Assembly (NCBI GenBank): GCA_028700325.1
Contig: JAQVSV010000005.1
Coordinates: 1 to 58,759 of the forward strand
Origin: Elusimicrobiaceae bacterium
GTDB taxonomy: Bacteria; Elusimicrobiota; Elusimicrobia; Elusimicrobiales; Elusimicrobiaceae
DNA length: 58,759 bases
Reading direction: 5' to 3'
Both the position numbers and the translations under genes were made by a program. Within the stretch, counting starts at the first letter, position 1, and every line of letters begins with the position of its first letter. Below, one piece after another: positions 1,885 to 53,388 of this stretch. The notes under the pieces were generated by a model. It saw only the letters and a program-made list of their open reading frames with translations, had not been told where the DNA came from and made no database searches.

Positions 1885-4122
1885 TTATCTGCCCGGATCC
1901 GGTTCCGGCACAGGCTCGCCATAACCTATCACCCTGAATCTTGCCGGCCTGGTTTTTACGGTTTTCCCGCCGCATTCCTGCGTAAAATACACGGAATGCG
2001 CGCCGGGCTTCAAACCCCACCACGCCTGCCCGGCGCTGGAGGACACTGCCGCGCCGTCCACCCGCCACTGCACGGGCGCTGAACACGGCGTAGCGGCCTG
2101 CAGTTTGATCTCCTGCGAAGCTGCGGGGTAGGCGGGTTCAAGCACGAATACGTCCCCGTCTTTCGGAAACGACACCGAAACCGTTTTCACAAAAGCGCGG
2201 GCCGGCGTTACCATGCCTTCTGGTTTATGAACCGGGCAGCCGGCCTCCGGCAAACGACTGGCGTAAAACAGTTCGTTTGCCGTCGCCGGACAGAAATGAC
2301 CGGCCGCGCGCCCCGAATCAGGACAGATTTCCGCTTCGGCAAGACCAGCCGGGCGCGCGAACCCGCCGGACGGATACCTGCGCTGCAGCATAAACGCCGC
2401 CAGCCTCAGCAGCGGGCCGGCTCCGGTAACGCCGGAAACCCTGCGCATGGGGCTGGCGTCGAAATTGCCCGCCCAGACCGCCACCGTCCACCCCGGCGTG
2501 TACCCCACCGCCCAGTTGTCCTTGTAATCCTTGCTCGTGCCGGTTTTTGCGGCGAAAGGAAACGGCATATTAAACGGCGAATCAAGCGAAAAAGCCGCTT
2601 CCCGTGCATGATTGTCGGACAGAATATCGGTGATAATATACGCCGCCCGTGCGTCCAGCGCGCGGCGCGGCAAGCCGGCGCGCCGCCCGAACACCGACCA
2701 CGGCAGATACTCCCCCCCGCGCGCAAGCGCGGCGTAGGCGTTAGCCAGCTCAAGCAGAGTAACCTCGCCGTTGCCCAGGCTCAGGCCCGCGCCGTAATGC
2801 CGGGCGTCCAGCCGCAAAGAATCGAACCCGAAATCATGCAGTGTTTTCAGCACGGCATCCGGGCCGAGCTGCTCCGCCAGATAAACCGCCGGAATATTAT
2901 AGGAACAGGCCAGCGCCTGCCTCACACTGACCGGCCCGTGAAACCGCCTGTCGTAATTTTCAGGCGAGAAGCCGTGCGCGAAAACGGCGGGCGAATCGGC
3001 GAGCCGGTCGGACGCGCGCCACCCGCGCTCAAGCGCAAGTCCGTACACAAAAGGCTTGAGCGCGGAACCGGGCTGGCGTAAAGCGGTAACGCCATCGACC
3101 TGGCCGGAATTCCGCTCGCTGAAATAATCCGCCGAGCCGACCCACGCCAGCACGCCGCCGGTTTTGTTGTCAAGCGCGACCAGCGCGGCGTTGGTGACGT
3201 TTTTATCACGCAATTTTTTGATATACGATCCGACGGCGCGCTCCAGCCCGCGCTGGAGCTCAAAATCAATCGAGGTACGGATCTTCCCGTCCGGCGGACG
3301 GCGGCCCCGCGCGTCCGCCGCATACCGGCGCAGCGCGAAATCGCAGAACTGCGGCGCGAAAAACCCGGCGGAACGTTTGCGGATTATTATTTTCTCGCTT
3401 AACGCGGATTCGTAAAGCGCGCGGTCTATGTAGCCGGCGGCTAGCATTCTGCCCAGCACCGCGTCGCGCCGGCGCAGGGCTTGCGCGTAATGGCGCACCG
3501 GGTCATAGCGGCTCGGGCTCTGCGGGATACCGGCAAGAAACGCCGACTGCGACAGTGTCAGCCGCTGCGGAGCCAGCTCAAAAAACAGTTCGCTGGCCGC
3601 ACCGATCCCCGCCGCGTTATTTGAAAAGTTAACGGTGTTAAGATACCGCTGAAGTATCTCCTGCTTGGTCATGCCGCGCTCCAGCCATAAGGCGCGCGCC
3701 ATTTCGCGCAGCTTGCCCGGCACCGTGCGTTCGCGCGGCGTTATCGCACGGGCCAGCTGCTGCGTTATGGTGGACGCGCCCGACACGGTTTTCCCGGCGC
3801 GCGCGTTCTGCCACAGGGCGCGGGCGATGGCGCGCACGTCCACGCCGGGATGTTCGAGAAACCGCCTGTCCTCCGCCGCCAGAAACGCAAGCAGCGCCCA
3901 GGCCGGAACGTCCGCCAGCTTCACCGGCGCGCTGTAACAGCCGGCCGCCGACAGATAGCGGCGCAAAGGCTCGCCGCCGGCCGCCGCGACGGTGACCGAA
4001 TAATCCGCCGGCCCTGGCGGCGGCGCAGGCCGGGCCGGCCATATAAATAACGCCGCGGCGGACAAAAAAATCCCCGCCGCGGCGCATAAAACGGCTGTCT
4101 TCCTGCCAGCCGGCGGTTTCAT
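1885..4122 (-). CDS. pbpC: Penicillin-binding protein 1C (bifunctional transglycosylase/transpeptidase)
   Basis: 745-residue class A PBP of the PBP1C type, anchored by an N-terminal membrane segment (about 10-28). The GT51 glycosyltransferase domain shows AAEDRRF with catalytic Glu84 and the ASTITQQLAR motif. The transpeptidase domain shows the three penicillin-binding motifs: S353-A-L-K356, S407-Y-N409 and K526-T-G528. The last 100 or so residues match the BiPBP_C extension typical of PBP1C. It would polymerise and cross-link peptidoglycan in the periplasm, or act in repair. The start overlaps the end of the upstream alpha-2-macroglobulin ORF by 4 bases (ATGA), so the two are translationally coupled, as in the well-known yfhM-pbpC pairing, where the macroglobulin is thought to trap proteases that enter through damaged wall. 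Confidence 0.95.
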   Translation of the reverse strand: MKPPAGRKTAVLCAAAGIFLSAAALFIWPARPAPPPGPADYSVTVAAAGGEPLRRYLSAAGCYSAPVKLADVPAWALLAFLAAEDRRFLEHPGVDVRAIARALWQNARAGKTVSGASTITQQLARAITPRERTVPGKLREMARALWLERGMTKQEILQRYLNTVNFSNNAAGIGAASELFFELAPQRLTLSQSAFLAGIPQSPSRYDPVRHYAQALRRRDAVLGRMLAAGYIDRALYESALSEKIIIRKRSAGFFAPQFCDFALRRYAADARGRRPPDGKIRTSIDFELQRGLERAVGSYIKKLRDKNVTNAALVALDNKTGGVLAWVGSADYFSERNSGQVDGVTALRQPGSALKPFVYGLALERGWRASDRLADSPAVFAHGFSPENYDRRFHGPVSVRQALACSYNIPAVYLAEQLGPDAVLKTLHDFGFDSLRLDARHYGAGLSLGNGEVTLLELANAYAALARGGEYLPWSVFGRRAGLPRRALDARAAYIITDILSDNHAREAAFSLDSPFNMPFPFAAKTGTSKDYKDNWAVGYTPGWTVAVWAGNFDASPMRRVSGVTGAGPLLRLAAFMLQRRYPSGGFARPAGLAEAEICPDSGRAAGHFCPATANELFYASRLPEAGCPVHKPEGMVTPARAFVKTVSVSFPKDGDVFVLEPAYPAASQEIKLQAATPCSAPVQWRVDGAAVSSSAGQAWWGLKPGAHSVYFTQECGGKTVKTRPARFRVIGYGEPVPEPDPGR

Positions 4123-7100
4123 TTCGCCAACGGCAGGATTTTCACCCTGCCGGTGGCGGTCCGGCCGAACACGTCAGGCTCGTACATGCACGACACAAAC
4201 CCGGCCGGCGCGCCATAATCGCCTTCCGCCACCGCCTGCACCATATAAGTGAACTCATGCTGGCCGGCGGGCAGGAACTCGGCGAACGCCGCAATACGGT
4301 CGTCATACCGCTGCACCTTGTGAAAACCCGGAGCATAATCTCCGGAAAACCAGCCCGCGTCCGCGGAACCGGCGGAGGCGACGCCCGCCTGGCCGGAAAG
4401 ATCGGTGTTCACGATTTCAAAACCGGCCGCGACAAAATCCTCAAGTGCCACGAAGTAGCGATCCTGCGCGGTATTGACCGACACCGTGACCTCGGCCCTC
4501 ACGCCGGGGCGCAGTTTCCCGCCGCCCGGCGCCTTCACTGCCCGCGTAACGGAGAAACCGCGTGCGAGCGGAGTTTTATACGCGGCCGGCACGGTTTTAA
4601 GTGCCATGGTGTAATAAAGCCGGCCGTCGCCGTCTTTTTCAAACCGTACGGGCACGGAAGCGGAGGAACGCGTCAGCATAAGCGCGTCGAACGCGGCGGT
4701 GGCCAGAACCGGCGCGAGATTCTCGAACCGGACACGCATAAGCGCGTCAGCCCCGGCAGTCACTTTCGCCGTAAAAGCCTGTTCCGGTTTTTCATAGGCC
4801 GAATAATAATATTCAAGCGCGCGAAGGGCGGCGGCGTTGTCGGCGGTGTTGTTCCACCGCCCGTTTTTCTGCTGGCGGACGAGCCAGCGGGCGACCTTGC
4901 CCGCGGCGGGAAACGTGCCGTCCGACTCCAGCAGCGCCTGCATGCAGAGCGCGGTTGTTTTTACCGCGCTCGCGTGCGAGCGCGCCGAAAAAGCCGTTTC
5001 GCCGAAAAACGCCGCGTCACCGCCGATGTTTTGCCGGTTGAGCAGCATGCGCGACAGTTCCGCGCGCTGTTCGTCCTTCACGCCAAGCCTGGAAGCCGCG
5101 CGCAAAAGACAGGAAACGCCTTCGCCGGACAGCGTGTCCCGCGCTCCGTAAAGCCTCGCAAACGCGTCCGGCCAGAAACTGCCGTTAAGCGCAAGCGCGT
5201 ACAGGGCATAAGCGGCGCTGTCGCCGCTGCCGTTTTTAATCAGGCCCTGCAGATAATTCACAGCGCCGGCGATGACCGGCGGGTCGGCCCGGTAGCCGCG
5301 TTTTGACGCGGCGGCGTAAGTTTCCAGCACATAGGAGGTAAGCCACGGGTCGGAATAGGAAGAATCCTCCCAGTATCCGAACCCGCCGCCCGGTCCTTTA
5401 TAGGAAGCGAGATTGGCAAACAGCTCGGACGCCTGTTTTTTCAGCGCGTCAGTATCCTGCGCAAGCCAGCGCCGGGCGAATTTTTCCGACACCAGAAGCG
5501 GCGCGAGTTTCGACAGTTTCTGCTCCAGACACTCATAGCGGTACCCGAGCAAATATTCCGCCGGCAGTTTAAGACTCGCCAGCGCGGTCGGCGACAGGAC
5601 AACCGCCAGCTCCGCGCTCAGCGCGTCAGCCGGACGCTTGAGAGTCTGAACGCCGGATCTTGCGATCGCCATCGAAACCGCCGTCGTTTCCGGCAGCTCG
5701 CCCTGCACTACGGGTATTTCCTGTTCCAGCCCGTCGCTCTCTTCGCCCGCCCGCGCAGTGAAAACCAGCGCGGCGGGGCCGGTTGATATTGCGCTGAAAG
5801 ACCATTCCAGCCGTTTGGCCGCGCCCGCTTTCAGAGTAACCTCACTCGGCGCGTTCGCGGCGGCCGCCAGCGCGCCAGAAACGTTCATTTCGACTCTGGC
5901 GGAAACCGTGGCGGTTGAATAGTTTATCAGCACCGCGCCGGCCTTGAACGTGTCGCCTTTTCTGGCGAAGCGAGGCAGCGCGGCTTTAAGCATGAGCGGC
6001 TTGGAAACCCTGATAGTGTCCGTGGAACTGCCGAACCGCGTTTCAGACGCGGCGACGGCGATTATCCTGTACGAAGTAAGCGTGTCCGGCAGCCTGAACG
6101 CAACACGCGCAGAGCCTTTGCGGTCGGTCATCACCGCCGGCATCCATGCGGCAAGCGGTATGAAATTCGAGCGTATGTCCACCCCGCCCGCGGCGCCGCC
6201 GCCTCCGCCGCCCCGGTTCTCGCCTTTCTCTCCGAAATTGCGCTGGCCCAGCACGAGCGGACGGGAATCGGCCGTTTTAACTCCGAGCGGGCGGGTTTCG
6301 TAAACCGCGCCGAACGGGTCGGGCGTGCCGTAATCCGTCAGATTAAGCACGCCCTCGTCAACCGCGTAAAAAGCCACTTCCGCAGGCGTGCCGTCGCCTT
6401 CCGCGTCCAGCGTGCGGATCTCGACAGCCGCCTCCGCGCCCGGCCTGTATTCTTTCGTTTCGGGCTTTAACCGCACGATTAGCCGGTTCTCGTCGGGGCT
6501 TACCGGAATGTTGATATACCCGAATTTGGCTTTCGGCTTGCCCGCGTCGAGCGATGACGCTGTCGGCTTGGCCGTTCTGCCGTTAACAAGCACCACGCCG
6601 ACATAAATATTCGGCACATGCCCGGCGCGCAGTTTCAGCTTGATTTCCTCGGCGCCGCCACTGATGCGCTCCACACGGCTCTCCACCACGCCCGCGCTTT
6701 CCACGGTGATCAGCGCCCACGCCTTTTCAAAGGGGGACTTGATCATTATTTTCGCGGTGTCGCCGGGTTTGTACCCGCTTTTATCGGCCGCAAGCGCGAC
6801 CAGATCGGTGTCGTCGCGTTCCCACGACACCCCCCCGTCGCCGGGCACATAAAAAGTGAAAGCCGTGGCGTTTGCGCGGCCGCCGCGCTCGCCGTTCAGC
6901 GCCAGGCGGTACGAACCCGGCGGCAGATCCTGCGGTATGGGCCAGCGGTATTCGCCGGAGCCGGACGTGTACGAAAACGTGGAGACCGGAATGATTTTTT
7001 CTTCCGACACGATTTCCAGCCGCCCCGACAGGCCCGCCCGCGCCGCGTTGCGGTACTCCCTGCGGGCAAGACCCGCCGTAACCGCCACGCCGGGCGCTGG

Positions 7101-8498
7101 CGCGCCGTCAGGCCGCACGGAAACGATGCCCGCAAAAACCGGCGTCGTGCTTTTTTCCACCCGCCACGGCCCGGCCACGCCCAGATAAAAATCCGCCGGA
7201 TGCAAAGTGGCGGCGGTTCTGGAAAACAGTCTCTGCATATCGGGGCTTAACACCGACGCTTCGGCTATCAGGCTGTACGGGCGCGTTACCGTAGCGGTGA
7301 CCCCGGCCACGGAAAACGACAGCCTGCCGTTTTCATCAAGCCGGCCCCGGCCGGCGGCCAGAACACGGTCCGGCGTATAATCCGCGTTCACGAAAGTATA
7401 GGAGCCCAGCCCGCAGGGCGCGAACGGCGCGGGCGAGAGCAGGAGCGACCATTCCGCCTCCGCGCCCGCCATAGGCGCGCCGGCCAGATACCAGCCGTCC
7501 ACAGCCGCCGAAAAAGTGTCGCCCCGATAATAGTTCTTCTGAAGCGGCGTAACCGAAACCGCGAACTGCGCCCGCTTAAACGCCTCCACCTGAAAATTCG
7601 CCTGCTCATCCACCTTGGGGCCGGCGGGATCGGGGTTGGACAGCCGCACGCTCCAGAACCCGGGTCCGGCGGTTTTGGAGAGCGGGAAGCTGAAATCGAA
7701 CGAGGAGCTGTCCGACACGGACGCCGTAAAACTGGACACTGTCGCATTCCCCCCGTCAGCCACTGTCACCGCAAGCTCGCGCACTCCGGCGTAAGTCACG
7801 CCTTTTTTGCCGTACCGGCGCAGGAACCCTTTGACGCTGACCGTTTCACCGGGCCGGTAAAGCCCGCGATCGGTAAAAACAAGCGTCCTGGCCGTGCCGG
7901 CCGGTTTTTCAAACCGGGCGGGCAGCCCGAAACGCCAGGGCTCCAGGCCGGAAGCGAAATCAAGCGACAGCGCCGCGATATCGCCTTTTTTTTCGGCGAA
8001 AGCCCACAGATCCGGCGATTCCCATTCACTGTCCGCGGCCAGCCCGAGCGCGCCCCAGCCGGGCAGTTCGGCCAGCCCGTCGCCATCGGTGCGCCCGGTC
8101 CAGACCACGTTGTTTTTTCCGTCGCGCAGGGTGATATTGACCCGGCCCAGCGGCTCGCCTGCGCTTAAATCGGTAGTCCACACCAGCCCGTTCACGGGCG
8201 AGGATTTCACGGTAAGCCCGATACCCGTAACGTTATCGAACGCCCACGCCCATTTGGCGCGCGAAGGCAGATACACGCCGGTAAACACGAACGGCGTTGC
8301 AGTGGAAAGATCTATCCCGCCGTAACAGCCGCTGTTGACGCGCGCGCGCGGTTCCAGCGCCTTCGGCTCCACTCCTTCCGGCAGGGCCGGAGCGCCGCCG
8401 GCTGAGGCTTTCATGCTGCCGTACTCGGTTATGAAATCCCCTTCCGCCACGGACTTCTGCGCATACAACACCTGCGGCACGTTCATTGCGCTGTACAC
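4119..8498 (-). CDS. yfhM: Alpha-2-macroglobulin-like protein, main part (downstream of an in-frame TAG)
   Basis: 1459 codons from a GTG at 8498 that lacks any upstream Shine-Dalgarno. It holds most of a bacterial alpha-2-macroglobulin: MG-type beta domains, the MG2 motif GLYRPGETV (about 212-220), a Gly-rich bait-like stretch (about 764-772), RSNFIPLAAW, and the thioester motif C990-L-E-Q993 in YRYECLEQKLS, identical in form to the CLEQ of the E. coli protein. Such proteins covalently trap proteases in the periplasm. There is no signal peptide on this ORF. The signal peptide and Ig-like domains are on the ORF just upstream in the same frame, separated only by TAG and three sense codons. The intact protein would be about 1839 residues, the usual size. 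Without readthrough or reinitiation this part would be unexpressed or cytoplasmic. Confidence 0.85.
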   Translation of the reverse strand: MYSAMNVPQVLYAQKSVAEGDFITEYGSMKASAGGAPALPEGVEPKALEPRARVNSGCYGGIDLSTATPFVFTGVYLPSRAKWAWAFDNVTGIGLTVKSSPVNGLVWTTDLSAGEPLGRVNITLRDGKNNVVWTGRTDGDGLAELPGWGALGLAADSEWESPDLWAFAEKKGDIAALSLDFASGLEPWRFGLPARFEKPAGTARTLVFTDRGLYRPGETVSVKGFLRRYGKKGVTYAGVRELAVTVADGGNATVSSFTASVSDSSSFDFSFPLSKTAGPGFWSVRLSNPDPAGPKVDEQANFQVEAFKRAQFAVSVTPLQKNYYRGDTFSAAVDGWYLAGAPMAGAEAEWSLLLSPAPFAPCGLGSYTFVNADYTPDRVLAAGRGRLDENGRLSFSVAGVTATVTRPYSLIAEASVLSPDMQRLFSRTAATLHPADFYLGVAGPWRVEKSTTPVFAGIVSVRPDGAPAPGVAVTAGLARREYRNAARAGLSGRLEIVSEEKIIPVSTFSYTSGSGEYRWPIPQDLPPGSYRLALNGERGGRANATAFTFYVPGDGGVSWERDDTDLVALAADKSGYKPGDTAKIMIKSPFEKAWALITVESAGVVESRVERISGGAEEIKLKLRAGHVPNIYVGVVLVNGRTAKPTASSLDAGKPKAKFGYINIPVSPDENRLIVRLKPETKEYRPGAEAAVEIRTLDAEGDGTPAEVAFYAVDEGVLNLTDYGTPDPFGAVYETRPLGVKTADSRPLVLGQRNFGEKGENRGGGGGGAAGGVDIRSNFIPLAAWMPAVMTDRKGSARVAFRLPDTLTSYRIIAVAASETRFGSSTDTIRVSKPLMLKAALPRFARKGDTFKAGAVLINYSTATVSARVEMNVSGALAAAANAPSEVTLKAGAAKRLEWSFSAISTGPAALVFTARAGEESDGLEQEIPVVQGELPETTAVSMAIARSGVQTLKRPADALSAELAVVLSPTALASLKLPAEYLLGYRYECLEQKLSKLAPLLVSEKFARRWLAQDTDALKKQASELFANLASYKGPGGGFGYWEDSSYSDPWLTSYVLETYAAASKRGYRADPPVIAGAVNYLQGLIKNGSGDSAAYALYALALNGSFWPDAFARLYGARDTLSGEGVSCLLRAASRLGVKDEQRAELSRMLLNRQNIGGDAAFFGETAFSARSHASAVKTTALCMQALLESDGTFPAAGKVARWLVRQQKNGRWNNTADNAAALRALEYYYSAYEKPEQAFTAKVTAGADALMRVRFENLAPVLATAAFDALMLTRSSASVPVRFEKDGDGRLYYTMALKTVPAAYKTPLARGFSVTRAVKAPGGGKLRPGVRAEVTVSVNTAQDRYFVALEDFVAAGFEIVNTDLSGQAGVASAGSADAGWFSGDYAPGFHKVQRYDDRIAAFAEFLPAGQHEFTYMVQAVAEGDYGAPAGFVSCMYEPDVFGRTATGRVKILPLAK

Positions 8499-8507
8499 AT
8501 GTTTGGG

Positions 8508-9638
8508 CTAGAACATGTTTTCCAGCACGCCAAACCCTCCGGCAAACGACACGCGCGGGCAGTAATCCCCTGCGGTTACGCTAAACGTCCTGTCGGCCGG
8601 CAGGGTGTTGCCGAACACGTCCTTAAGCCCCTTTGTCAGTGTAAAATCATAGGTGCGGCCCGGCTCGAAATCCAGCCAGTCAAGCTGATATGAATAGGCC
8701 CGCTCCGCCGGCCGCGCGAAGCCAAAACCGCCGGATATATATGCCGGCACGGCGTTTTTTTTCAGCCCGTCCGGCACAGCCAGATGCTCCGCAAAATCCG
8801 AATATCTGACCGGATTTGACAGTTTCACCGCATAATTCGCCGGCAGACACCCGCTGGAAGCGCTTACGCCCTTGAATTCCAGCCCGCCGTAAGTGTAAAA
8901 ACGGACACCCTCCGCAAGCCGCGCGCCCGCGCCGCCCGCGCCCGGCAGACCGGCGGCGACTGCAAGGAAATATTCCGAATCCGGCTTGAGCGCAAGCACC
9001 GGCTTGACCGCCAGCACCGTGGCGGTGGACGGCGGGATTTCACCCTCGTTCGTTATATACGGCGGAAAAAGTTTTTCCACTTCCTCCGGCTTCGCCTTGC
9101 GCACACCGCAGGGTATTTTCGAACCGGACGAGTCGGCCAGCGTGATGAAATTGCGCGCGGCATCATATCTGACCGGCTGATTGAACCGCAAAAACACCGT
9201 CGGGTACCGCGACACCCAGCGCGCGCCGTTTTGCGGATCACTGCCGAGTAGCCGCACCAGCGGCGTGACAAACGCGCGCCGCACCTCACCGGCAAGCGCC
9301 GAGCCGGAAACGGCTTTGACGCCTTTTGGCACCGTCACCTTATATACGCGTGAAAATTCGAACGGTTCGTCCGGAGTAAATACGGCGGTCGCCGTATCAG
9401 CCCAGCGGCAGACGCCGCTGACCGCAGGCTCCAGCAAAAACGGGCAGGGTAATTTATGGGACGCTGCGCCCAGCGCGACCATCGGCTCGCTGAACATCAC
9501 GGTAACGACGCCCGGCGTTTCCCCGTCCCGCAGCAAGCCGTCGGGCGAAACCGACAGCACCCGCACCTGCGCCCAGCCGCAGGCGGCGAAAACCATATTC
9601 AGCAAAACGGCAACCGCAAACGCATGAATCTTTTTCAT
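8508..9638 (-). CDS. yfhM: Alpha-2-macroglobulin N-terminal part: signal peptide and Ig-like (Big_5) domains
   Basis: 376 residues ending in a TAG at 8510-8508. It starts with a signal peptide (KKIHAFAVAVLLNMVFAACG); an AAC could serve as a weak lipobox, or signal peptidase I could cut after GWA. The remainder resembles the Big_5/MG1-preceding domains found at the N-terminus of YfhM-type macroglobulins (VSPDGLLRDGETPGVVTVMF and related strands). The ORF stops in the middle of the linker to the next domain (FGVLENMF, then TAG). The downstream ORF continues in the same frame, so both are parts of one ancestral gene. A good Shine-Dalgarno (GGGAG) lies 7 bases before the ATG and a promoter lies further upstream. 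The stop may be a nonsense mutation, a sequencing error or a recoded codon. Confidence 0.85.
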   Translation of the reverse strand: MKKIHAFAVAVLLNMVFAACGWAQVRVLSVSPDGLLRDGETPGVVTVMFSEPMVALGAASHKLPCPFLLEPAVSGVCRWADTATAVFTPDEPFEFSRVYKVTVPKGVKAVSGSALAGEVRRAFVTPLVRLLGSDPQNGARWVSRYPTVFLRFNQPVRYDAARNFITLADSSGSKIPCGVRKAKPEEVEKLFPPYITNEGEIPPSTATVLAVKPVLALKPDSEYFLAVAAGLPGAGGAGARLAEGVRFYTYGGLEFKGVSASSGCLPANYAVKLSNPVRYSDFAEHLAVPDGLKKNAVPAYISGGFGFARPAERAYSYQLDWLDFEPGRTYDFTLTKGLKDVFGNTLPADRTFSVTAGDYCPRVSFAGGFGVLENMF

Positions 9639-13530: not shown

Positions 13531-14865
13531 ATGAAAATCGCCAATTGCGTTCTCATTTTACTATTTTTAGCCGCGCCGCTGCGCGCCGAAACCGGTCAGG
13601 TGGTGAAAACACATGATGACGAGGTGCTTATAGACATCTCGGAATTCCGGGAGAAACCGGTTGCCGGCTCGCCGTTCGTGATTTATGAGCCGGGCGAAGA
13701 ACTGGTCAATCCCTCCACCGGAAAAAAACTCGGCGCGGAATTAAAGCGACGGGGCAAAGGCTCGCTGACCGAAATTCATGACACCTACGCCAAAGGCAGA
13801 ATATCGGAATCAAGCGCGGTCATCAAGCCGGGTTTCGTGGCGGAATTTGAAACTGCGGTAAAACGGCTGACGGAACCGGCGGCCCCGCCGGCCAATACAC
13901 TGCCGGCGCAGACGCCGGTCTGGGAAAGCGAACCGGTGCCCGGCATAACGGTAGACGCCGCGCCTGGAGATTTTGACGGCGACGGCCTGACCGAACTCGC
14001 CGTGGCGCAGGCGGCGCTAATTTCCATTTTCCGGCGGGACGGCACGCAACTGGTCGCCGTTTCATCGGCGGCGCTGCCGGCGATACAGCGTATCGTCTCG
14101 ATTGAAACGCTTAAAGCGGGCCAGGCGGACCTGAAAACCGACGCGCTGATAATAAACATCTTCGACAGCGCCTCCAATCAGGTGGAAGCGGGCATTTATG
14201 CGCTCGAGAACGGAACCCTGACCCGCAAGGACCAGCTGAAATGGATCGTGCGAGCGCTCAACGCCGCGGGCGACGCGCCCGCCTATTATACCCAGGAGAT
14301 ATACCAGAGCCAGGGGTTCCGGCTGTCATTTATCAAACCGCTGGAGTACCGCGACGGGTTCAGAACCGGGTCCGCCCGGCTCACGCTGCCGCGCGCAGAC
14401 TGGCTGTACGGCCTGACCGTCACCGATCTGGACGGGGACGGCAAAAACGAATCCGTCTACACCACGCCCGGCGGCAGCATAAGCGTGCAGTTTGAAAAAC
14501 GCGCCAAACACGCCGACACCCGCACCGGATTCAGCAGAACGCCCAACCGCGCAAACATAAAAAATACCCAGCTTTATTTCAACCTGCGCCTGCCGGTCGT
14601 GAAAACCGGCAAAACCGCCGGCATTTACGGGGTGAGCAACATCCCCGCGCACATGCTGTCGGAAGCGTTCGGCAAATACTCGGACGCTGACCTGTGCCGG
14701 TTCGCCTGGAACGGCGCGATCCTGACAGAAACCGGCCGCACACGGCTGGGCGGCGCGGTCTGGAACATAAACTACGGCTCGTTCGGCGGGCTGGAGCCGG
14801 GCCTGATCATCCCGGTGACAACGATTGACGACGCCACCATAATAAAAGTGTTCGGATACCAATGA
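13531..14865 (+). CDS. Exported protein with FG-GAP/VCBS-like calcium-binding repeats
   Basis: 444 residues with a signal peptide (KIANCVLILLFLAAPLRA, then ETGQ). Two DxDGDG-type loops are visible, GDFDGDGLTELAV (about 147-159) and TDLDGDGKNESVY (about 300-312). These are typical of beta-propeller FG-GAP/VCBS repeats that bind Ca2+. The N-terminal part (VVKTHDDEVLIDISEF, SPFVIYEPGEELVNPSTGKKLG) resembles the flagellar-assembly or SH3-like beta modules of exported proteins. No catalytic site is recognised. It would act in the periplasm or at the cell surface. It is first in an operon and its stop overlaps the next start by 4 bases (ATGA). The start at 13531 rather than 13525 is chosen from the promoter position. 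Confidence 0.75.
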   Translation: MKIANCVLILLFLAAPLRAETGQVVKTHDDEVLIDISEFREKPVAGSPFVIYEPGEELVNPSTGKKLGAELKRRGKGSLTEIHDTYAKGRISESSAVIKPGFVAEFETAVKRLTEPAAPPANTLPAQTPVWESEPVPGITVDAAPGDFDGDGLTELAVAQAALISIFRRDGTQLVAVSSAALPAIQRIVSIETLKAGQADLKTDALIINIFDSASNQVEAGIYALENGTLTRKDQLKWIVRALNAAGDAPAYYTQEIYQSQGFRLSFIKPLEYRDGFRTGSARLTLPRADWLYGLTVTDLDGDGKNESVYTTPGGSISVQFEKRAKHADTRTGFSRTPNRANIKNTQLYFNLRLPVVKTGKTAGIYGVSNIPAHMLSEAFGKYSDADLCRFAWNGAILTETGRTRLGGAVWNINYGSFGGLEPGLIIPVTTIDDATIIKVFGYQ

Positions 14866-16139
14866 CATTGACCCTGCGGCCACTGATAACGGCTCTGCTC
14901 GCGGCGTCGCTGTTTGCGGCGGCCGTGCCGGCTCCGGCCCAGAATTTCAAACCCGTTGACCGGCAGAAACCGCAGAAACACCGGCCGCTCCCCGACGAGG
15001 ACGCCGAACCCGACATTGACGCGGACACGGCCGACGCGGCCGACACCGCGGACGATATCGCGGGCAATGTGCCCGACTATGCGCCCGGCTCCGATTATAC
15101 GGCGCCAGGCGCAACATCCGCCGGTCTTAAAATCCCCGAACTGGCGACCGATTTCAAGGGCTGCGGCTATCTGTTCGCTGTCGAAGCCGGCGATTCGTCA
15201 TGGGAAACGATTGCGCGGGCGGCGATTAACCGGCTGTCGCCGCGCGTGACGGCGGAAACGGTGCTGAGGTCGGACAATCTGTCGGCGGTGCAGGCGGCGA
15301 TTGACAGCCTGCAGGCGCGGGCGGTGAAAAAGATTGTGGTAATCCCGTTTTTTCTCAATTCCAATTCCGACTCGCTCAACCGCCTGAAACACATGCTGGG
15401 CCTGCGCGCGGCCGCGGCCGACGCGGATAAATCGCCCGGCGGCGGAGTGCCTACCAGCGATTCCCAGAAAGCGCTTTTGAAATCGCAGATTACGATCACG
15501 TCCGCGCTCGACGACTCGCCGGCCTACGCGCTCGCCGTCTCGCGTTCTGTCAGGAACTACCGCCGCAGCAGGCCGCTGGCGCTGCTGCTGGTCGGAGCGG
15601 GACTCAATAACGATATGGCGAACCGCGCCAAACTCGACATAATGAACCGGATCGCCGCGCAGGTGACGGCAAGCTCCGCCTGCGCCATAGCGCAGGCGTT
15701 CGTGCTCAGGCCTCGCGGCGACGCCAGGCGCGACATCGGCAAACCCGAACTGAAAATTGACGCCGCCAGTTTCTCCAAAAGCGGCATTTACGGCAAGGAC
15801 GGGCGGCTCCTGAAAGAAACCGACGAATCTTCCAACGAACAATCCAGCGCGCAGCAGCTTAAAAAAACCGCGCGGAAACTGGCGGCCCATTACTCCATAG
15901 TGGCGGTCGGCTATTCCATATCAAGCCACGAGCTGGACAAACTGGTGCAGGACAACATGGACGGCCTGTTTTACAGCTGGCTTGGCAACGCCGCGCTTGA
16001 CGAAGCGGGCGTGCAGGCCTGGCTGGTTACGAAAATAAACGAAGGGGTGGACCTGCCGGCCATAGAGCCGCAGAGCCGGCAGTCCGGCGGTCTCTCTTCA
16101 CGGGAAAGCTATGAAAAAGCAATTAAAGACTGGCAGTAA
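14862..16139 (+). CDS. Exported CbiX-like (sirohydrochlorin chelatase fold) protein, probably non-catalytic
   Basis: 425 residues. It has a signal peptide (LTLRPLITALLAASLFAAAVPAPA) followed by an Asp/Ala-rich linker (about 40-85). The remainder resembles two tandem halves of the CbiX/CbiK class II chelatase fold: KKIVVIPFFLNSNSDSLNRL matches the strand-and-loop of CbiX (usually VVVPLFLSPGxHxxxDIP), and ALLLVGAGLNNDMANRA matches the usual LVGHGSRDPEAN. The active-site His of the HGS motif is replaced (VGAG; VEAG in the first half), so metal insertion is unlikely; tetrapyrrole or metal binding remains possible. Cytoplasmic location is normal for this family, so export is odd. The overlaps with the genes on both sides (4 and 29 bases) mark translational coupling. 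Family assignment is by pattern only and moderately sure. Confidence 0.55.
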   Translation: MTLTLRPLITALLAASLFAAAVPAPAQNFKPVDRQKPQKHRPLPDEDAEPDIDADTADAADTADDIAGNVPDYAPGSDYTAPGATSAGLKIPELATDFKGCGYLFAVEAGDSSWETIARAAINRLSPRVTAETVLRSDNLSAVQAAIDSLQARAVKKIVVIPFFLNSNSDSLNRLKHMLGLRAAAADADKSPGGGVPTSDSQKALLKSQITITSALDDSPAYALAVSRSVRNYRRSRPLALLLVGAGLNNDMANRAKLDIMNRIAAQVTASSACAIAQAFVLRPRGDARRDIGKPELKIDAASFSKSGIYGKDGRLLKETDESSNEQSSAQQLKKTARKLAAHYSIVAVGYSISSHELDKLVQDNMDGLFYSWLGNAALDEAGVQAWLVTKINEGVDLPAIEPQSRQSGGLSSRESYEKAIKDWQ

Positions 16140-22615: not shown

Positions 22616-23575
22616 ATGCCAATAAAAAAAATACGACTGGAAACCCGGGAACAGGCCGTCTGCGTGCTGGGCGTGCAGGACGAGCAGCTGCGCCGGCTGG
22701 AACGCGATTACAAGGTTGAGCTTTTCGTACGGCACGAGCCGGGCGAAGCCGGCGGAGTGGACATAAGCATAAAAGGCCCCATCTCGCGGGTGGACAAGGC
22801 GCTCAACGCCATCACCGACATAATTTCGCAAAAAGAAATGCTCGCGCACGCCGAGCCGACGCAGCCGGGCGACAAACCAAGCCCGATCAGCAACGGCGTA
22901 ATTTACCACCCGTCGCGCGGGCTGCCGGTGAAACTGCGCAACGCCGCGCAGACGGAGTACGCCAACATGATTTTCGGCAGCGACATGGTGATCGGGATCG
23001 GCCCGGCCGGCACAGGCAAAACCTTCGTCGCCGCGGCGGCGGCCATGCGTTCTCTGGAAATGAATCTGGTTGACCGGATAATACTCACAAGGCCCATCGT
23101 GGAAGCCGGAGAAAAACTGGGGTTTCTGCCGGGCGACCTGTATGAAAAAGTGCACCCGTACCTGCGCCCGCTTTACGACGCGTTCCAGACGCTCGCCGGC
23201 CCCGAGCGCTTCCGCAACCTGCGCGAAGACGGCGTGCTGGAAATCGTGCCGCTCGCCTACATGCGCGGCCGCACTCTTGAAAACGCGTTCATCATACTCG
23301 ACGAGGCGCAGAACACCATGCCCGAACAGATGAAAATGTTTCTCACGCGCATGGGCATGAATTCAAAGGTGGTCGTGACCGGCGACATCACCCAGATAGA
23401 CCTGGAAGACAAGAATAAAAGCGGCCTGTTCCAGATCACCCACATTCTCCAGCATACCGAGGGCATAAAGTTCTTCCGGTTCAACAAAGAAGACATCGTG
23501 CGCCATCCGCTGGTGAAAGAAATCCTCGCCGCCTACGAAAACTGGGAAAACAAAAAAACCAAGAAACCCATGTAG
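22616..23575 (+). CDS. ybeZ: PhoH-like ATPase (YbeZ type)
   Basis: 319 residues. A KH-like N-terminal part (about 10-75) is followed by a P-loop ATPase core: Walker A GPAGTGKT (129-136), RPIVEAGEKLGFLPGDLYEKV, Walker B ILDEAQNT and the TGDITQIDL segment. This protein is regularly found next to ybeY and is believed to work with it in RNA turnover or ribosome maturation. Here too ybeY follows after 18 bases. The gene starts 2 bases after the GH57 stop, so it is probably co-transcribed with the glucan genes. Confidence 0.94.
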   Translation: MPIKKIRLETREQAVCVLGVQDEQLRRLERDYKVELFVRHEPGEAGGVDISIKGPISRVDKALNAITDIISQKEMLAHAEPTQPGDKPSPISNGVIYHPSRGLPVKLRNAAQTEYANMIFGSDMVIGIGPAGTGKTFVAAAAAMRSLEMNLVDRIILTRPIVEAGEKLGFLPGDLYEKVHPYLRPLYDAFQTLAGPERFRNLREDGVLEIVPLAYMRGRTLENAFIILDEAQNTMPEQMKMFLTRMGMNSKVVVTGDITQIDLEDKNKSGLFQITHILQHTEGIKFFRFNKEDIVRHPLVKEILAAYENWENKKTKKPM

Positions 23576-23593
23576 CGCCGGGCGGACGCATTT

Positions 23594-24049
23594 ATGAAAA
23601 TCAACATCTTCAACAATTCCGGGCTTGCCGCAAAAACATTGCCCGACCCCGGACTGCTCAGGCGGACGGCGCGAAGCGGGCTGGGGCCTCTGGCCCGCCT
23701 TGCGGGCGAGCTGAACATCGTGTTCGTAACCGCCGCAGAAATAAAAAAGCTCAACCGCCGGTATCTTTCGACGGGCGCGCTGACCGACGTGATTTCGTTC
23801 AATTACGAATTGCCCGCGCAGGCGGCCCGCGAACCGGGTTTCCCGTTCGGCGACATTTTCATTTGCGCCGAATCGGCGCGATTGCAGGCGAAAAATCTGG
23901 GGCACAGCGTCAAAAAAGAACTGCTGCTGCTGGCGGCGCACGGCGCGCTGCACCTGGCCGGAATGGATGACTCGACAAAAGCGGAGCTTGCCGCCATGGA
24001 CTCCGCCGCGCTCGCCATACTCGCCAGCCTTGCGCCGCGCCTTGGATGA
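23594..24049 (+). CDS. ybeY: Endoribonuclease YbeY (rRNA maturation factor) with altered third metal ligand
   Basis: 151 residues. YbeY fold with TDVISFNYELP and GDIFICAESAR strands and the motif HGALHLAGMDD. The family motif is HGxLHLxGYDH, in which three His bind zinc. Here H116 and H120 are kept but the third position is D126 (codons gga atg gat gac). Asp can bind zinc, so function may persist, but this is unusual. YbeY takes part in 16S rRNA 3'-end maturation and 70S quality control. Position directly after the PhoH-like gene is the conserved one. A poor Shine-Dalgarno (GGCGGA) precedes the ATG. Confidence 0.9.
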   Translation: MKINIFNNSGLAAKTLPDPGLLRRTARSGLGPLARLAGELNIVFVTAAEIKKLNRRYLSTGALTDVISFNYELPAQAAREPGFPFGDIFICAESARLQAKNLGHSVKKELLLLAAHGALHLAGMDDSTKAELAAMDSAALAILASLAPRLG

Positions 24050-41924: not shown

Positions 41925-44849
41925 CTATTCGTCCCGGCTGGTCTTGCGTTTTTTATATTCGTCGTCCATCAAGCTGTCGTAATGAGAACGTTCATCGGCG
42001 GAAATTTCGTCAATGAGGGCGCGCGCCCTGCTTCGTCCGGCGTGAGGATCTTTCGGCAGCGGCAGCTGATCCGGCACGGAAGCCGCTTTTTTCTTTTTCT
42101 TTACGGCCGGCCTGGTTTTTACAGCCGGCTTTCCGGACGCCGACCGCGCCGCGTTGGAATAGTCCGGCTCGCTCGCCGAGGGGGACAGCTTATTGGCCTT
42201 GCCCGACGGGCTTGAGAACATGCCGTCGTCACCGCCGAGCAGTTCAACGGCTTTGTTGTTGATGCCGCTCTTTATCTTCCGGGCATCCGTATCAACCACA
42301 AAACCGTACTGTAGCGGCTCTTTTCGCGGCTGCAGCAGTTTATAGTACACATAGCAGGTGCTGCGGTAGCAGGATTTGCTTTCCCATTTTTCCTCATACG
42401 GCTCGCCGCCCAGCCCGGCCACCAGGGTATTGGCAAACCAGTTCTCAATGGTGCCTTTCCCGCCGGGCAGACTATGCTGCTTGACTATTGAAACAGCCAA
42501 CTCGCTTTTCGCGGCGGCGTCCAGACCCGGCGGTTCGCCGGACGGCTGCGCCGCCGTCGCCGCGGCGGGAACAGCCGAGGTCGAAACCTGCGTGCCGCCT
42601 GCGTCAGGCTGCGTCGCCGTCGCCGCCGGATCCTGTTCCGCGGCGGCTTTGCCGCGCCCGCGCAGCAGAAAAACCGCCGCAAGCAAAACAACGGCCGCGA
42701 GGCCGCCAGCCAATACGACAACAAGCATTTTCTTCGCGCCGGGAGCGGCTCCGCCGGGCTGGGTAACATTCGGCGCCGTCAGCCTGGCATTTCTCACTTC
42801 GGCCGCTACATGCACGGTACGCAGGTCATTCTGCGTACCTATGCCAACGCCGCCGGTAACGCCGGAAAAATGCGTTCTGGTCATGCGGATGGAAGACTGC
42901 TCCTGTGCGGGCAGCGCCGCTGATGCGGTCATCTGGCCCGATTGCATGGAAGTTTTCGTAAAGGCTTCGGTAAACAGATTGCCGGGCAAAACATCCGGAA
43001 TCATCTGGGTTTTATTCTGCCCTGCGGTTTCTTCGGTCATCGCCGGAAAAACCTTCGGTTCGCCCGTGGCATTCAGCCGCTCTGTCCGGCTCAATGCGGC
43101 GATACGGGCCTGAATATCGCCCATAAACGGGCCGGACTCCTGCGAATCCCTGTCCGCTTTCGCCGCCGGGCCGGCCGAATCCGCGATAGACGCGGAATCT
43201 TCGCTTTGAACGGCCTGCGGAGATTGCGGCGGCACCGTAGGCCGGGGCGGCGGCGCTGTAAACTGGGGCGGCACCGTAGGCCGGGGCGGCGGCGCCGTAA
43301 ACTGGGGCGGCACCGTAGGCTGTGGCGACGGCGAAAGATTGGGCGAGGTCACCAGATCTTCCCGCATCACTACCGGCGGCATATCGCCCGAAACCGCAGA
43401 TGAACCGTCTTCCATATCACGGCTTATCGTGTCGCGTGCCAATGCCGACAGATCCATATTCCTGGCCGGCGGCAGATTGTCATCGGAAGAAGCAGACGAT
43501 GCGGAATCAGACTCCGGCCGGGCGCCCGCCTGACCGGCCCGCTCTTTTTCCGGCTCGTCGGCACGGTATAATTCCGTATCCAGCAGGCTTGGCGAAACCA
43601 TCTGCTGGGGAAATTCCATGTCGCTTATGGACGTGTCATCATCTTCAGACTCCTGCCGGCTGGAATCCGACGAAACTGCGGGCTGCGCTGCCCGCGTGAT
43701 ATGGCGCCGCGAAAACCCGGATTGCGGCTCCGCTTCATCCTCAAACTCATCATCCGGCCCGGCGGAATACTCCGGCCGCCGGTAAACAGGCCGCCGCGCA
43801 TGACTCTTTTGCGGCCGTTCCCGCGTTTGGGCGCGCATATAATCGGCCGCCGTTTCTTCCTCCTCGTCCGGTTCAGACGAGTCAAAAGAAAACCGCGTTG
43901 AATCCTGCGCCAGTTCCTGTAAAATCTCGTTTTCTTTCAGCGTGGCGACCCAGCCGGGCGCAACTTCGCCAAGCGCTCTGGGGAATTTCTTCTCCGGGCC
44001 GGCCAGCCCGCCGTCTGCGCCTGACCGGTCAGCCGGTAAAACGCCGCGCGGCATTTTTTCACGGCATCCCGAATCCTGCCCAGCCGCTTCACGCGCCGTT
44101 TTGGCGCCAGAATACTGCTGCCCCGTGCCGTCTTCCGGCTCCAGCACCGCGCCGTCAAATTTTATCAGCTGCCGGGCTTCCTGTTCGGAATAACCGAGCG
44201 TCCTGAGCATTTCAATCGTATCCGGGTCAGACGACATGTCCGGGCTCTCGCCTTCCACACCTTCCGCGCGTTCCGCTTCCGCGGTAGCGCCGGGCCCGTC
44301 GTCAGTTCCGCCGTCCGCTTCAGGCACGCCGTCCGGTTCGCTTCCGTCCGGCAGGATCTCCCGCGAAGCCTGCCCGTCCGCTTCCGGGTCCGCCGCCGGG
44401 GCGACCGCCTCGGCGTAAACCTGTTCCAGCTCGTTTTCAAATCCGCCGCCGGAACCGGATTCTTCCGCGCCGGCTTCCCCGGAAGAACCTGCGGCAGCGG
44501 CCTTCATATCACCGCCATCGCCCGAACCGGCTGCAGCCGTGATATCAGCCTCCGCACCGGAAACCACTTCCTGCCCGCCGGGTCCGGCTTGAGAATCAGT
44601 ATTTAAACCGGTAAATTCACCCGTCGGACCGGCGCCGTCCGCGTTTTCCTGCGTTCCGGGCTCGTCCTGACCCGATAAAGCGGCCTTCAATTCCCCGAAC
44701 TCCGACGCGCATACCCAGTCCGCCCCGCTCTCGCCCAGCCTGTCTTCGGGGCAAACAAGCGATGTCAGCCGGAAATCATCCCGGCTGACAAGCTCATCTG
44801 CGTCAAACGGCCCAGTGATTTCGCCCCGGGCGTACAACCAATAATTCAC
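41925..44849 (-). CDS. Large single-pass membrane protein with N-terminal GYF_2-like domain and proline-rich repeats, unknown function
   Basis: 974 residues from a GTG at 44849 with GGAG six bases upstream; the ORF extends further, but that would overlap gltX. Residues 1-65 resemble a GYF_2 domain (YWLYARGEITGPFDADELVS ... ADWVCASEFGELK). Then comes about 640 residues of acidic, Ser/Pro/Glu/Gly-rich low-complexity sequence with a short UBA-like stretch (DTIEMLRTLGYSEQEARQLI) and a PTVPPQFTAPPPR repeat. One transmembrane segment follows (about 705-728, KMLVVVLAGGLAAVVLLAAV), then a compact C-terminal domain with a Cys pair (SCYRSTCYVYYKL), and a basic tail. Topology would put the disordered part in the cytoplasm. 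It lies between gltX and pilT, 23 bases before pilT, so a link with pilus function is possible but unproven. Confidence 0.7.
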   Translation of the reverse strand: MNYWLYARGEITGPFDADELVSRDDFRLTSLVCPEDRLGESGADWVCASEFGELKAALSGQDEPGTQENADGAGPTGEFTGLNTDSQAGPGGQEVVSGAEADITAAAGSGDGGDMKAAAAGSSGEAGAEESGSGGGFENELEQVYAEAVAPAADPEADGQASREILPDGSEPDGVPEADGGTDDGPGATAEAERAEGVEGESPDMSSDPDTIEMLRTLGYSEQEARQLIKFDGAVLEPEDGTGQQYSGAKTAREAAGQDSGCREKMPRGVLPADRSGADGGLAGPEKKFPRALGEVAPGWVATLKENEILQELAQDSTRFSFDSSEPDEEEETAADYMRAQTRERPQKSHARRPVYRRPEYSAGPDDEFEDEAEPQSGFSRRHITRAAQPAVSSDSSRQESEDDDTSISDMEFPQQMVSPSLLDTELYRADEPEKERAGQAGARPESDSASSASSDDNLPPARNMDLSALARDTISRDMEDGSSAVSGDMPPVVMREDLVTSPNLSPSPQPTVPPQFTAPPPRPTVPPQFTAPPPRPTVPPQSPQAVQSEDSASIADSAGPAAKADRDSQESGPFMGDIQARIAALSRTERLNATGEPKVFPAMTEETAGQNKTQMIPDVLPGNLFTEAFTKTSMQSGQMTASAALPAQEQSSIRMTRTHFSGVTGGVGIGTQNDLRTVHVAAEVRNARLTAPNVTQPGGAAPGAKKMLVVVLAGGLAAVVLLAAVFLLRGRGKAAAEQDPAATATQPDAGGTQVSTSAVPAAATAAQPSGEPPGLDAAAKSELAVSIVKQHSLPGGKGTIENWFANTLVAGLGGEPYEEKWESKSCYRSTCYVYYKLLQPRKEPLQYGFVVDTDARKIKSGINNKAVELLGGDDGMFSSPSGKANKLSPSASEPDYSNAARSASGKPAVKTRPAVKKKKKAASVPDQLPLPKDPHAGRSRARALIDEISADERSHYDSLMDDEYKKRKTSRDE
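43231..43325 (-). repeat. 39-bp in-frame tandem repeat encoding PTVPPQFTAPPPR
   Basis: Copies begin at 43231, 43270 and 43309 (the last incomplete); period 39 bases or 13 codons. The two full copies differ by a single base (gcgctg/gcgccg). The repeat lies within the proline-rich cytoplasmic region of the GYF_2-like membrane protein and is a probable site of copy-number variation. Confidence 0.85.
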
Positions 44850-44862
44850 TCGCGCTCCAGTT

Positions 44863-46329
44863 CTACTCCGCGCACAGCGGCTTTGCCGACTCAAGTCTGC
44901 GCAATACCGTTTCGCGGCCTAGATATTCAAGCATCAAAAACAGGGTCGGCCCCTGAGTGCGCCCGCTTGCGGCCACTCGCAGCGGATGAAAAACCTGCCC
45001 GGCTTTCAGTCCGCTGTCGGCTGCGAACCTGCGGGCTGCCGCCTCCAGTTCTTTTTCTTTAAAATCTGCCTGCTGCCCGTAAACAGCCGCAATGCCGCGC
45101 AGCACCGCTTTCGCGCCCGGCTTTTTAAGCACTTTTTCCACGGACTCAGGATCAAATTCAACCTGTTCCGTGAAAAAGAAATCCACCAGCGGAGGAATTT
45201 CCGTAAGCAGTTTGTATTTTTCCTGCTCAATAGCCACGATCTTCACAAGTTTTTCCCGGTCGCCGGACACATCCACGCCGGCCTTCGTCAAAAACGGCAA
45301 CGCCCGCCGCGCCAGTTCATCAGCCGGCATTTTGCGGATATATTCGCCGTTCATCCACTTTAGCTTAACGGGATCGAAAACAGCCGGATTCTTCTGGCAC
45401 CCGGCGATATCGAACTTCGCTTCCAGTTCGCCCGGCCCGAACAGCTGCTGGCTTTCCGTGTTGGACCAGCCGAGCAGAGCAAGATAATTCATCATCGCTT
45501 CCGGCAAAAACCCTTCCGCCTCGTATTCGAAGATGCCGGTGTGCCCGTGCCGCTTGGAAAGCTTGGTGCCGTCCGGCCCGTGGATCATTGACAGGTGCAT
45601 GAATTCCGGCATTTCAAACCCCAGCGCCCTGTAAAGGTTTATCTGATGCGCGGTATTGGAGATGTGGTCGTCGCCGCGCAGGATATGCGTGATTTTCATC
45701 AGGTGATCGTCAATAACGCAGGCGAAATTATAGGTAGGGTACCCGGAGTATTTCTGCATGATGAAATCATACAGCAGTTTATTTTCGAATTTCACTTCGC
45801 CGCGGATCGGATCGTTGAAAACGGTGGTTCCCTCCGCCGGCATTTTAAAACGTATGACGGGTTTGCGGCCCTGCGCCTCCAGTGCGAGGCGCTGCTCCGC
45901 GGTAAGATCCCGGCACCGCCCGTTATAACGTGGCGGGCGTTTTTCAAGAGTCGCACGGCGGCGTTCCTCTTCCAGCTCTTCCGGCGTGCAGTAGCAGTAA
46001 TAGGCCTTGCCTTCGGCCAGCAGCCTGTCGGCGTAAGCCTTGTAAACGCCCTGTTCGGCGCGTTTGCTCTGGTAATAGGGGCCGTAATCACCTTTTTCGC
46101 CGCCTTCGATACAGGGGCCTTCGTCCCAGTCCAGGCCGAGCCATTTCATGCCGCGGAAAATAGACTGTTCAAACTCCGCGTTCGACCGGAGTTCATCCGT
46201 ATCTTCTATACGGAGAATAAACACGCCTTTATGCCTGCGCGCCAGCAGCCAGTTAAACAATGCCGTACGGGCACCGCCCAGATGCAGGTTGCCCGTGGGC
46301 GACGGTGCAAATCTAACTCTGATAGTCAT
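44863..46329 (-). CDS. gltX: Glutamyl-tRNA synthetase
   Basis: 488 residues. HIGH-type motif in FAPSPTGNLHLGGARTALFNW and KLSKRHG (about 253-259). The EGPCIEGGEKGDYGPYYQS part and the C-terminal anticodon-binding domain of class Ib enzymes are in place. It charges tRNA-Glu; whether it also charges tRNA-Gln (non-discriminating, with GatCAB) cannot be decided. No Shine-Dalgarno precedes the ATG; the mRNA leader is predicted to be very short. Confidence 0.96.
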   Translation of the reverse strand: MTIRVRFAPSPTGNLHLGGARTALFNWLLARRHKGVFILRIEDTDELRSNAEFEQSIFRGMKWLGLDWDEGPCIEGGEKGDYGPYYQSKRAEQGVYKAYADRLLAEGKAYYCYCTPEELEEERRRATLEKRPPRYNGRCRDLTAEQRLALEAQGRKPVIRFKMPAEGTTVFNDPIRGEVKFENKLLYDFIMQKYSGYPTYNFACVIDDHLMKITHILRGDDHISNTAHQINLYRALGFEMPEFMHLSMIHGPDGTKLSKRHGHTGIFEYEAEGFLPEAMMNYLALLGWSNTESQQLFGPGELEAKFDIAGCQKNPAVFDPVKLKWMNGEYIRKMPADELARRALPFLTKAGVDVSGDREKLVKIVAIEQEKYKLLTEIPPLVDFFFTEQVEFDPESVEKVLKKPGAKAVLRGIAAVYGQQADFKEKELEAAARRFAADSGLKAGQVFHPLRVAASGRTQGPTLFLMLEYLGRETVLRRLESAKPLCAE

Positions 46330-48916: not shown

Positions 48917-49116
48917 TAACAAGTCAAATTTCAACTCAAGCATAAAAATCCCGGTTTCCGATGCGGCTGTTACGGCAGAAATATCGCACGCTGTCGCATC
49001 TGCCTCGCGGCGCACAGCCTGTCTATTCATTTATGATAGGCATTATGTCCCAGCCCGTCAACCGCCAAAAGACCATGCCGCATATAGGCCTTTTGACCCA
49101 TGCGGATTCCGGCGGT

Positions 49117-52536: not shown

Positions 52537-52542
52537 ATCCGC

Positions 52543-53388
52543 CTATTCGCCCCATTTCAGCTTGTCGCTGAGCACGTCAAAATAATTATATTCTGGCGGC
52601 ATGAGCATTTTTACCGTCCGGTCGGATATGCGGATTACCGCCTCATCCCCGTCGTTCATCGTATAGTTCACCTGTCCGTCAACGGAAAAAACCGGATGCC
52701 GGCGCTCGAAACCGCCGGAAAAATCCGGCCGGACGCGCAGCGTCATGCAGGAAGGCAGCACCAGCGGCCGCTGGGTAAGCGTGTGCGGACAAATCGGAAG
52801 CAGCAGCAGCGCCGCCAGCGCCGGATGCACAACAGGGCCGGACGCCGCCAGCGCGTAAGCCGTGGAGCCGGACGGCGTGGCCACGATAAGGCCGTCGCAG
52901 AAATAGGTTTTGGCGAACACTCCGTCAATATTCGCCGCCAGTCTTATGGCGCGCGACGACATTGATTTGATGACACAGTCATTAAGCGCCACCGATTCCG
53001 GCTGCACCGTTTTTCCGCCGTTTTCGACCCGTCCGGACAAAAGACTGCGCCTCATTTCACCGAACCCGCCTGAAAAAATCTGGTCAAACCGGCTCTCAAA
53101 CTCCTGCGCGTGCAGCACGCTTAAAAACCCCAGCGTGCCCGCGTTAAGCGCAAGCAGCGGTATGTCAAGCCCGCCGAGATCGCGCGCGGCGTGCAGAACG
53201 GTGCCGTCGCCGCCTATGGAAATGACAAGATCAGCCTCCTCTTTCCATTCCGCGTGCTCATAGCAGGCTATGCACGAATGCTCCACTCCGCGGCTGCGCA
53301 GCACATTCGACACGCGGTCGCTCCACAGAAGCGAGGTTTCCTTGCGTTCATTGAAAAATACGGCTATTTTGTTATACCTGTATGGCAT
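52543..53388 (-). CDS. nadK: NAD kinase
   Basis: 281 residues from the ATG at 53388 (GGAG six bases upstream); the frame is open 33 bases further but without better start. The GGDGT motif (59-63, ISIGGDGTVLHAARDL), ALNAGTLGFL, a LND in the place of the conserved NE/ND segment, and SGSTAYALAASGPVVHP complete the NadK fold. It phosphorylates NAD+ to NADP+ in the cytoplasm. Part of the comEC-nadK-recN gene row. Confidence 0.95.
   Translation of the reverse strand: MPYRYNKIAVFFNERKETSLLWSDRVSNVLRSRGVEHSCIACYEHAEWKEEADLVISIGGDGTVLHAARDLGGLDIPLLALNAGTLGFLSVLHAQEFESRFDQIFSGGFGEMRRSLLSGRVENGGKTVQPESVALNDCVIKSMSSRAIRLAANIDGVFAKTYFCDGLIVATPSGSTAYALAASGPVVHPALAALLLLPICPHTLTQRPLVLPSCMTLRVRPDFSGGFERRHPVFSVDGQVNYTMNDGDEAVIRISDRTVKMLMPPEYNYFDVLSDKLKWGE

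What the first reader, a model, noticed from the sequence alone, without database searches (positions are those of the whole stretch)
8496..8520. Alpha-2-macroglobulin gene interrupted by a single in-frame TAG
The ORF at 9638-8508 (signal peptide, Ig-like domains) and the ORF at 8498-4119 (MG domains, CLEQ thioester) are in the same frame with only TAG CCC AAA CAT between them. The join lies inside a normally continuous region. Together they give the usual length of about 1839 residues. The second ORF is intact over 1459 codons, including its active motif, so there is no sign of decay. The downstream GTG has no ribosome-binding site, and without the upstream signal peptide the product could not be exported. 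Either the stop is read through or is very recent, or it is a sequencing error. Two ACATGT palindromes flank the TAG (8497-8502 and 8513-8518) and could form a short stem.
Basis: partly seen in the sequence, partly recalled or inferred. Interest (0 to 1): 0.65.

Follow-up and report, generated by a model that had tools for sequence, protein, structure and literature searches.

The report
Bacterial alpha-2-macroglobulin gene broken by stop
A gut-type bacterium's gene for a large protease-trapping surface protein carries a stop codon about a fifth of the way in; the genome has only the ordinary machinery for stopping at that codon and 89 related genomes lack the stop, so this is most likely an ordinary broken gene (or, less likely, an assembly error) and not a new kind of translation.

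Summary
In detail: on the minus strand an in-frame TAG (8510-8508) separates a 376-codon ORF with a signal peptide from a 1,459-codon ORF, and together they encode one bacterial alpha-2-macroglobulin (YfhM type), followed by pbpC. Dedicated read-through is not supported. The genome has an intact release factor 1, no CUA-anticodon tRNA among 43 tRNA genes and no PylS above threshold, and TAG ends several conserved genes in this window at the expected place. In 89 distinct related genomes that cover the junction, none has a stop or indel there. (1) TAG is not the only anomaly: it sits in the near-invariant motif G-x-GVLE[SG]YL[PSK]xRxP, where the window also loses Tyr (89/89 in relatives) and Pro (88/89). 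(2) The break lies close to the border of the two N-terminal domains (MG0/NIE). Downstream parts (bait region, CLEQ thioester, MG10) are intact, and divergence elsewhere matches other single-genus lineages. Most likely this is a private, recent nonsense lesion that abolishes the exported protein; assembly error is the main rival. A template-switch origin (hairpin over the patch) is possible but unproven. No same-species sequence was available.

The parts
8508..9638 (-). 5' part of the alpha-2-macroglobulin gene: signal peptide, Big_5 Ig-like domain (residues 26-125) and the MG0-like region; ends at the in-frame TAG (376 aa)
8508..8510 (-). in-frame TAG, residue 377 of the joined frame; relatives have P 66, S 13, K 7, N 1, A 1, Q 1 in this column
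8496..8516 (-). seven-codon patch M F * P K H V inside the family motif YL[PSK]xRxP; Tyr375 (89/89 in relatives) and Pro381 (88/89) are lost
8497..8518 (.). perfect inverted repeat, 7-bp arms, 8-nt loop that contains the TAG; also the 8-bp direct repeat ACATGTTT at 16-bp spacing; the 25-bp stretch 8496-8520 is unique in the genome with up to 3 mismatches
4119..8498 (-). 3' part: bMG3, MG2, bMG5, bait-region domain, A2M domain, thioester domain with CLEQ, bMG10 (1,459 open codons)
1885..4122 (-). pbpC-like gene (transglycosylase, transpeptidase, BiPBP_C), intact; its ATG overlaps the A2M stop codon (ATGA)

Best explanation
One ordinary bacterial alpha-2-macroglobulin gene (yfhM-pbpC operon type) carries a private and probably recent nonsense lesion. 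Ribosomes stop at TAG 8508-8510 and release a 376-aa exported fragment (MG0-like part only). The remaining 1,459 codons, with the bait region and thioester, are not exported, because any restart inside them would lack the signal peptide, so the protease trap is lost. The lesion is a small patch (stop plus two invariant residues changed within seven codons) and not one altered codon; it may have arisen in one template-switch event at the local inverted repeat. Shown: the sequence, its absence from 89 relatives, standard decoding of TAG. Inferred: loss of function, recency, single origin of the patch.
For: Same frame, same gene: domains of one A2M on both sides, 89/89 distinct relatives continuous and without indel at the site, pbpC downstream in relatives. 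TAG acts as a stop: RF1 and RF2 both present, no CUA tRNA, no PylS above cut-off, and TAG ends NadK, PhoH, GltX, the TrmA-like gene and T2SSF at or near the end of their domains. Tyr375 and Pro381, invariant or nearly so, are lost next to the stop, and the 8 residues from 375 are the most deviant stretch of the whole protein against 17 relatives. GC3 of both parts (0.71, 0.74) is close to that of neighbours (0.73-0.79), so no long decay. An intact paralogue (2,001-aa frame) on contig C21 could reduce the cost of loss. In-frame stops in bacterial genes that mostly persist for short times are reported as common (PMC7918605).
Against: No reads and no same-species or same-genus genome, so an assembly error cannot be excluded. 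The window protein departs from 31 of 210 columns that are invariant in 17 relatives, as do other single-genus lineages (39/252, 23/236), and three departures within seven residues are not significant by permutation (104 of 300), so the patch may partly be ordinary divergence. Undoing an inversion at any position does not restore the motif beyond removing the stop, so a simple spacer inversion is not the origin.
Confidence: 0.64

Rival explanations
1. Assembly or consensus artefact: the 20-bp patch is not in the organism, and the gene is intact like those of its relatives.
For: Draft genome in 128 contigs; all 89 relatives intact; the rest of the gene and its neighbours are undamaged; a hairpin sits on the spot.
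Against: Other long genes in the window are intact (LeuRS, AcrB, GltX). The patch keeps frame and length. Both halves are about equally far from relatives (about 33% identity just before and just after the join), so there is no sign of a chimera of two organisms. Short-read errors seldom alter several codons in 21 bp (own knowledge).
Confidence: 0.22
2. Split gene: the N-terminal part and the A2M body have become two proteins, the second made by re-initiation at GTG 8498 or ATG 8486, close to a domain border.
For: The break lies about 20 residues after the start of a separately crystallised E. coli A2M fragment (4zjh_A: chain residue 25 aligns with window residue 380), so both products could fold. 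GTG starts 10 nt after the stop. Other same-frame gene pairs across TAG exist here (NadK|RecN-like, PhoH|YbeY).
Against: No ribosome-binding site before either start and no signal peptide on the second product; A2M acts in the periplasm (PMC4498604). No relative is split. Tyr375 and Pro381 are lost.
Confidence: 0.08
3. Functional read-through: the TAG is decoded at useful frequency and full-length A2M is made.
For: 1,459 intact codons downstream with normal composition; stop codons can be leaky without a dedicated suppressor in some bacteria (PMC7918605).
Against: RF1 present, no CUA tRNA, no PylS; TAG is a normal stop in several conserved genes; the stop is conserved in 0 of 89 relatives; no significant RNA structure; invariant residues beside the stop are also lost.
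Confidence: 0.05

Closest known systems
Bacterial alpha-2-macroglobulin of the YfhM/ECAM type (PDB 4ziq, 5a42, 4rtd, 4u48) in operon with pbpC
   Same: Domain set Big_5-MG3-MG2-MG5-BRD-A2M-TED (CLEQ)-MG10 and pbpC directly downstream
   Different: Interrupted by TAG at residue 377 and lacking Tyr375 and Pro381 of the motif found in its own order
Transient in-frame stop codons in bacterial coding genes (Belinky et al. 2021, PMC7918605)
   Same: A stop inside an otherwise open gene, private to one lineage
   Different: Accompanied by neighbouring changes at invariant positions; no close relative with which to measure dN/dS
Template-switch multinucleotide mutations at inverted repeats (PMC8604942, PMC7202029)
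   Same: A perfect short inverted repeat lies exactly on a cluster of changed codons
   Different: No parental sequence is known, so homogenisation of the arms is not shown; the inversion test was negative

Membership tests
Bacterial alpha-2-macroglobulin (YfhM type) | MG domains, bait region, A2M domain, bMG10 | tested here: met
   Pfam bMG3, MG2, bMG5, A2M_BRD, A2M, TED_complement, bMG10, all over cut-off
Bacterial alpha-2-macroglobulin (YfhM type) | CXEQ thioester motif | tested here: met
   CLEQ in the joined frame
Bacterial alpha-2-macroglobulin (YfhM type) | Neighbour pbpC | tested here: met
   window 4122-1885, ATGA overlap; also next to the gene in relatives
Bacterial alpha-2-macroglobulin (YfhM type) | One continuous exported polypeptide | tested here: not met
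   TAG at residue 377; 89/89 relatives continuous
TAG reassignment or pyrrolysine read-through | tRNA with CUA anticodon | tested here: not met
   none among 43 tRNA places; the genome is a draft, 99.34% complete
TAG reassignment or pyrrolysine read-through | PylS | tested here: not met
   22 bits against a cut-off of 178
TAG reassignment or pyrrolysine read-through | RF1 lost or altered | tested here: not met
   prfA 438.9 bits over cut-off 423.25, PAT and GGQ present
TAG reassignment or pyrrolysine read-through | TAG avoided as terminator | tested here: not met
   TAG ends 9 of 36 main ORFs (this A2M fragment included), among them NadK, PhoH, GltX
Template-switch mutation | Change makes the inverted repeat more perfect than in the parent | not testable with these tools
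   no same-genus sequence held

The most novel reading that the evidence does not exclude
The A2M of this lineage is made as two polypeptides broken near the MG0/NIE border, or by regulated low-level read-through of TAG, as a way to control how much protease trap reaches the periplasm.
Probability: 0.05. Interest if true: 0.55.

Novelty: new member of a known kind. Interest (0 to 1): 0.15.

Why it matters
Mostly a caution: a long intact frame after a stop, with no nearby pseudogene debris, can suggest recoding, but the release factor, tRNAs, stop usage and relatives point to an ordinary nonsense lesion. If real, it is a case of loss of the large periplasmic protease trap in a lineage that keeps pbpC and a second A2M paralogue.

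Tried and rejected
Transposon footprint or 16-bp tandem duplication (suggested by the 8-bp direct repeat around 8 bp): rejected, because the distance from the invariant Glu373 to the invariant Asn386 is unchanged in 89 relatives, so there is no net insertion. A recombinase or mobile site copied elsewhere: the 25-bp stretch is unique in the genome with 3 mismatches allowed. Spacer or segment inversion: 4,095 inversions scored; the best gain comes mainly from losing the stop. Codon-level parsimony, with the ancestor limited to family residues: 8 substitutions at least, and models with indels cost little less, so no clear single event. A chimera of two organisms at the join: similar identity to relatives on both sides. 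Significant clustering of lost invariant residues: not significant by permutation. Search for a closer copy in genome contigs (only distant relatives, at most 28% identity) and viral contigs (none).

Full report
Observation. On the minus strand, ORF 9638-8508 (376 aa) ends in TAG, and ORF 8498-4119 (1,459 aa) continues in the same frame after TAG CCC AAA CAT. Read through, the frame has 1,839 residues with the TAG at residue 377. Pfam finds Big_5 in the first part and bMG3, MG2, bMG5, bait region, A2M, TED and bMG10 in the second. The gene is followed by pbpC (4122-1885), whose ATG overlaps its stop. This is the yfhM-pbpC arrangement known from E. coli (PMC4498604).

Whose genome. The window is a contig of a 2.21-Mb draft genome in 128 contigs, the only held member of its genus. 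One relative is a single contig of 1,643,562 bp, the size I recall for Elusimicrobium minutum Pei191, so the family is probably Elusimicrobiaceae (from memory, not tested).

Is it one gene in relatives? Yes. In 40 relatives, 18 orthologues of about 36-43% identity have uninterrupted frames of 1,852-1,953 aa or run off a contig edge. In a search of 149 genomes of the order with a 400-residue piece across the junction, the only stop inside any match was the window's own TAG. Aligning the junction from 89 distinct genomes gives no stop and no indel.

The site itself. The TAG lies in a strongly conserved motif: G370 89/89, E373 89/89, Y375 89/89, L376 87/89, R379 85/89, P381 88/89, N386 89/89. The TAG column varies (P 66, S 13, K 7, N 1, A 1, Q 1). 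The window reads ENMF*PKHV: Tyr375 and Pro381 are gone, while F376, P378, K379 and H380 are each found in some relative (one, L102, has YFPPKHP). The 8 residues from 375 are the most deviant stretch of the protein against 17 relatives, though the stop itself contributes about a third of that score. As a control, the window departs at 31 of 210 invariant columns, much like two other single-genus lineages (39/252 and 23/236), and a cluster of three within seven residues is not significant by permutation (104/300). So the patch is suggestive but not proof of one event.

Inverted repeat. ACATGTT-CTAGCCCA-AACATGT covers the patch. Perfect 7-bp inverted repeats with 3-12 nt loops number 160 in the window, so the repeat alone is unremarkable. 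The 45-nt single strand folds as DNA with outer pairs too and beats 198 of 200 shuffles; as RNA (141 nt) it is ordinary. Template switching between short inverted repeats makes multinucleotide changes (PMC8604942; PMC7202029) and would fit, but without a parental sequence it cannot be tested. Inversion was tested and does not explain the patch.

Decoding. RF1 is present with PAT and GGQ, and RF2 with SPF and GGQ. Of 43 tRNA places, all were typed and none reads TAG. PylS is absent above threshold. TAG ends conserved genes at the right place in this window: the TrmA-like gene (profile 354/357 at residue 463 of 466), NadK, PhoH, GltX (Anticodon_2 to residue 482 of 488), T2SSF. Two of these TAGs (NadK|RecN-like, PhoH|YbeY) also separate genes in the same frame, so a same-frame continuation after TAG is not in itself a sign of recoding.

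Consequence. The second ORF has no ribosome-binding site at GTG 8498 or ATG 8486 and no signal peptide. Bacterial A2M works in the periplasm, so the trap should be lost. Profile alignment puts the break near the N-terminal domain border: chain residue 25 of the separately crystallised E. coli fragment 4zjh_A aligns with window residue 380. The two bacterial N-terminal domains are named MG0 and NIE (PMC12939704); that 4zjh spans NIE-MG1 is my recollection. A split at a domain border is therefore physically conceivable, but no relative shows it. A second A2M gene with an open frame of 2,001 aa lies on contig C21.

Verdict. One A2M gene with a private nonsense lesion (0.64), an assembly artefact (0.22), a split gene (0.08), or functional read-through (0.05). 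In-frame stops in bacterial genes are reported as widespread and mostly short-lived (PMC7918605). Interest is low.

Noticed in passing
window 8490-8535, L004-L153: The motif G-x-GVLE[SG]YL[PSK]xRxP is nearly invariant in 89 A2M genes of this order, but the aligned stretch of E. coli YfhM keeps little more than the Pro and the later Asn; its role is unknown to me.
   Followed up: partly
G000:C21:185-4393 (L002): A second, distant A2M gene (2,001-aa frame) in the same genome; similar second copies occur in many relatives, so this lineage carries two A2M types.
   Followed up: partly
window 52536-52545 and 23573-23594: Two other TAG codons separate same-frame neighbours (NadK then a RecN-like gene; PhoH then YbeY); these are real gene ends.
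   Followed up: yes
window 41925-44894 and 14862-16139: ORFs of 989 aa and 425 aa, in gene-dense surroundings, without any Pfam match at E 0.001.
   Followed up: no
window 46418-49030: 870-aa protein with a Ser/Thr kinase domain only at its C-terminal end (620-859); the first 600 residues match no Pfam family.
   Followed up: no
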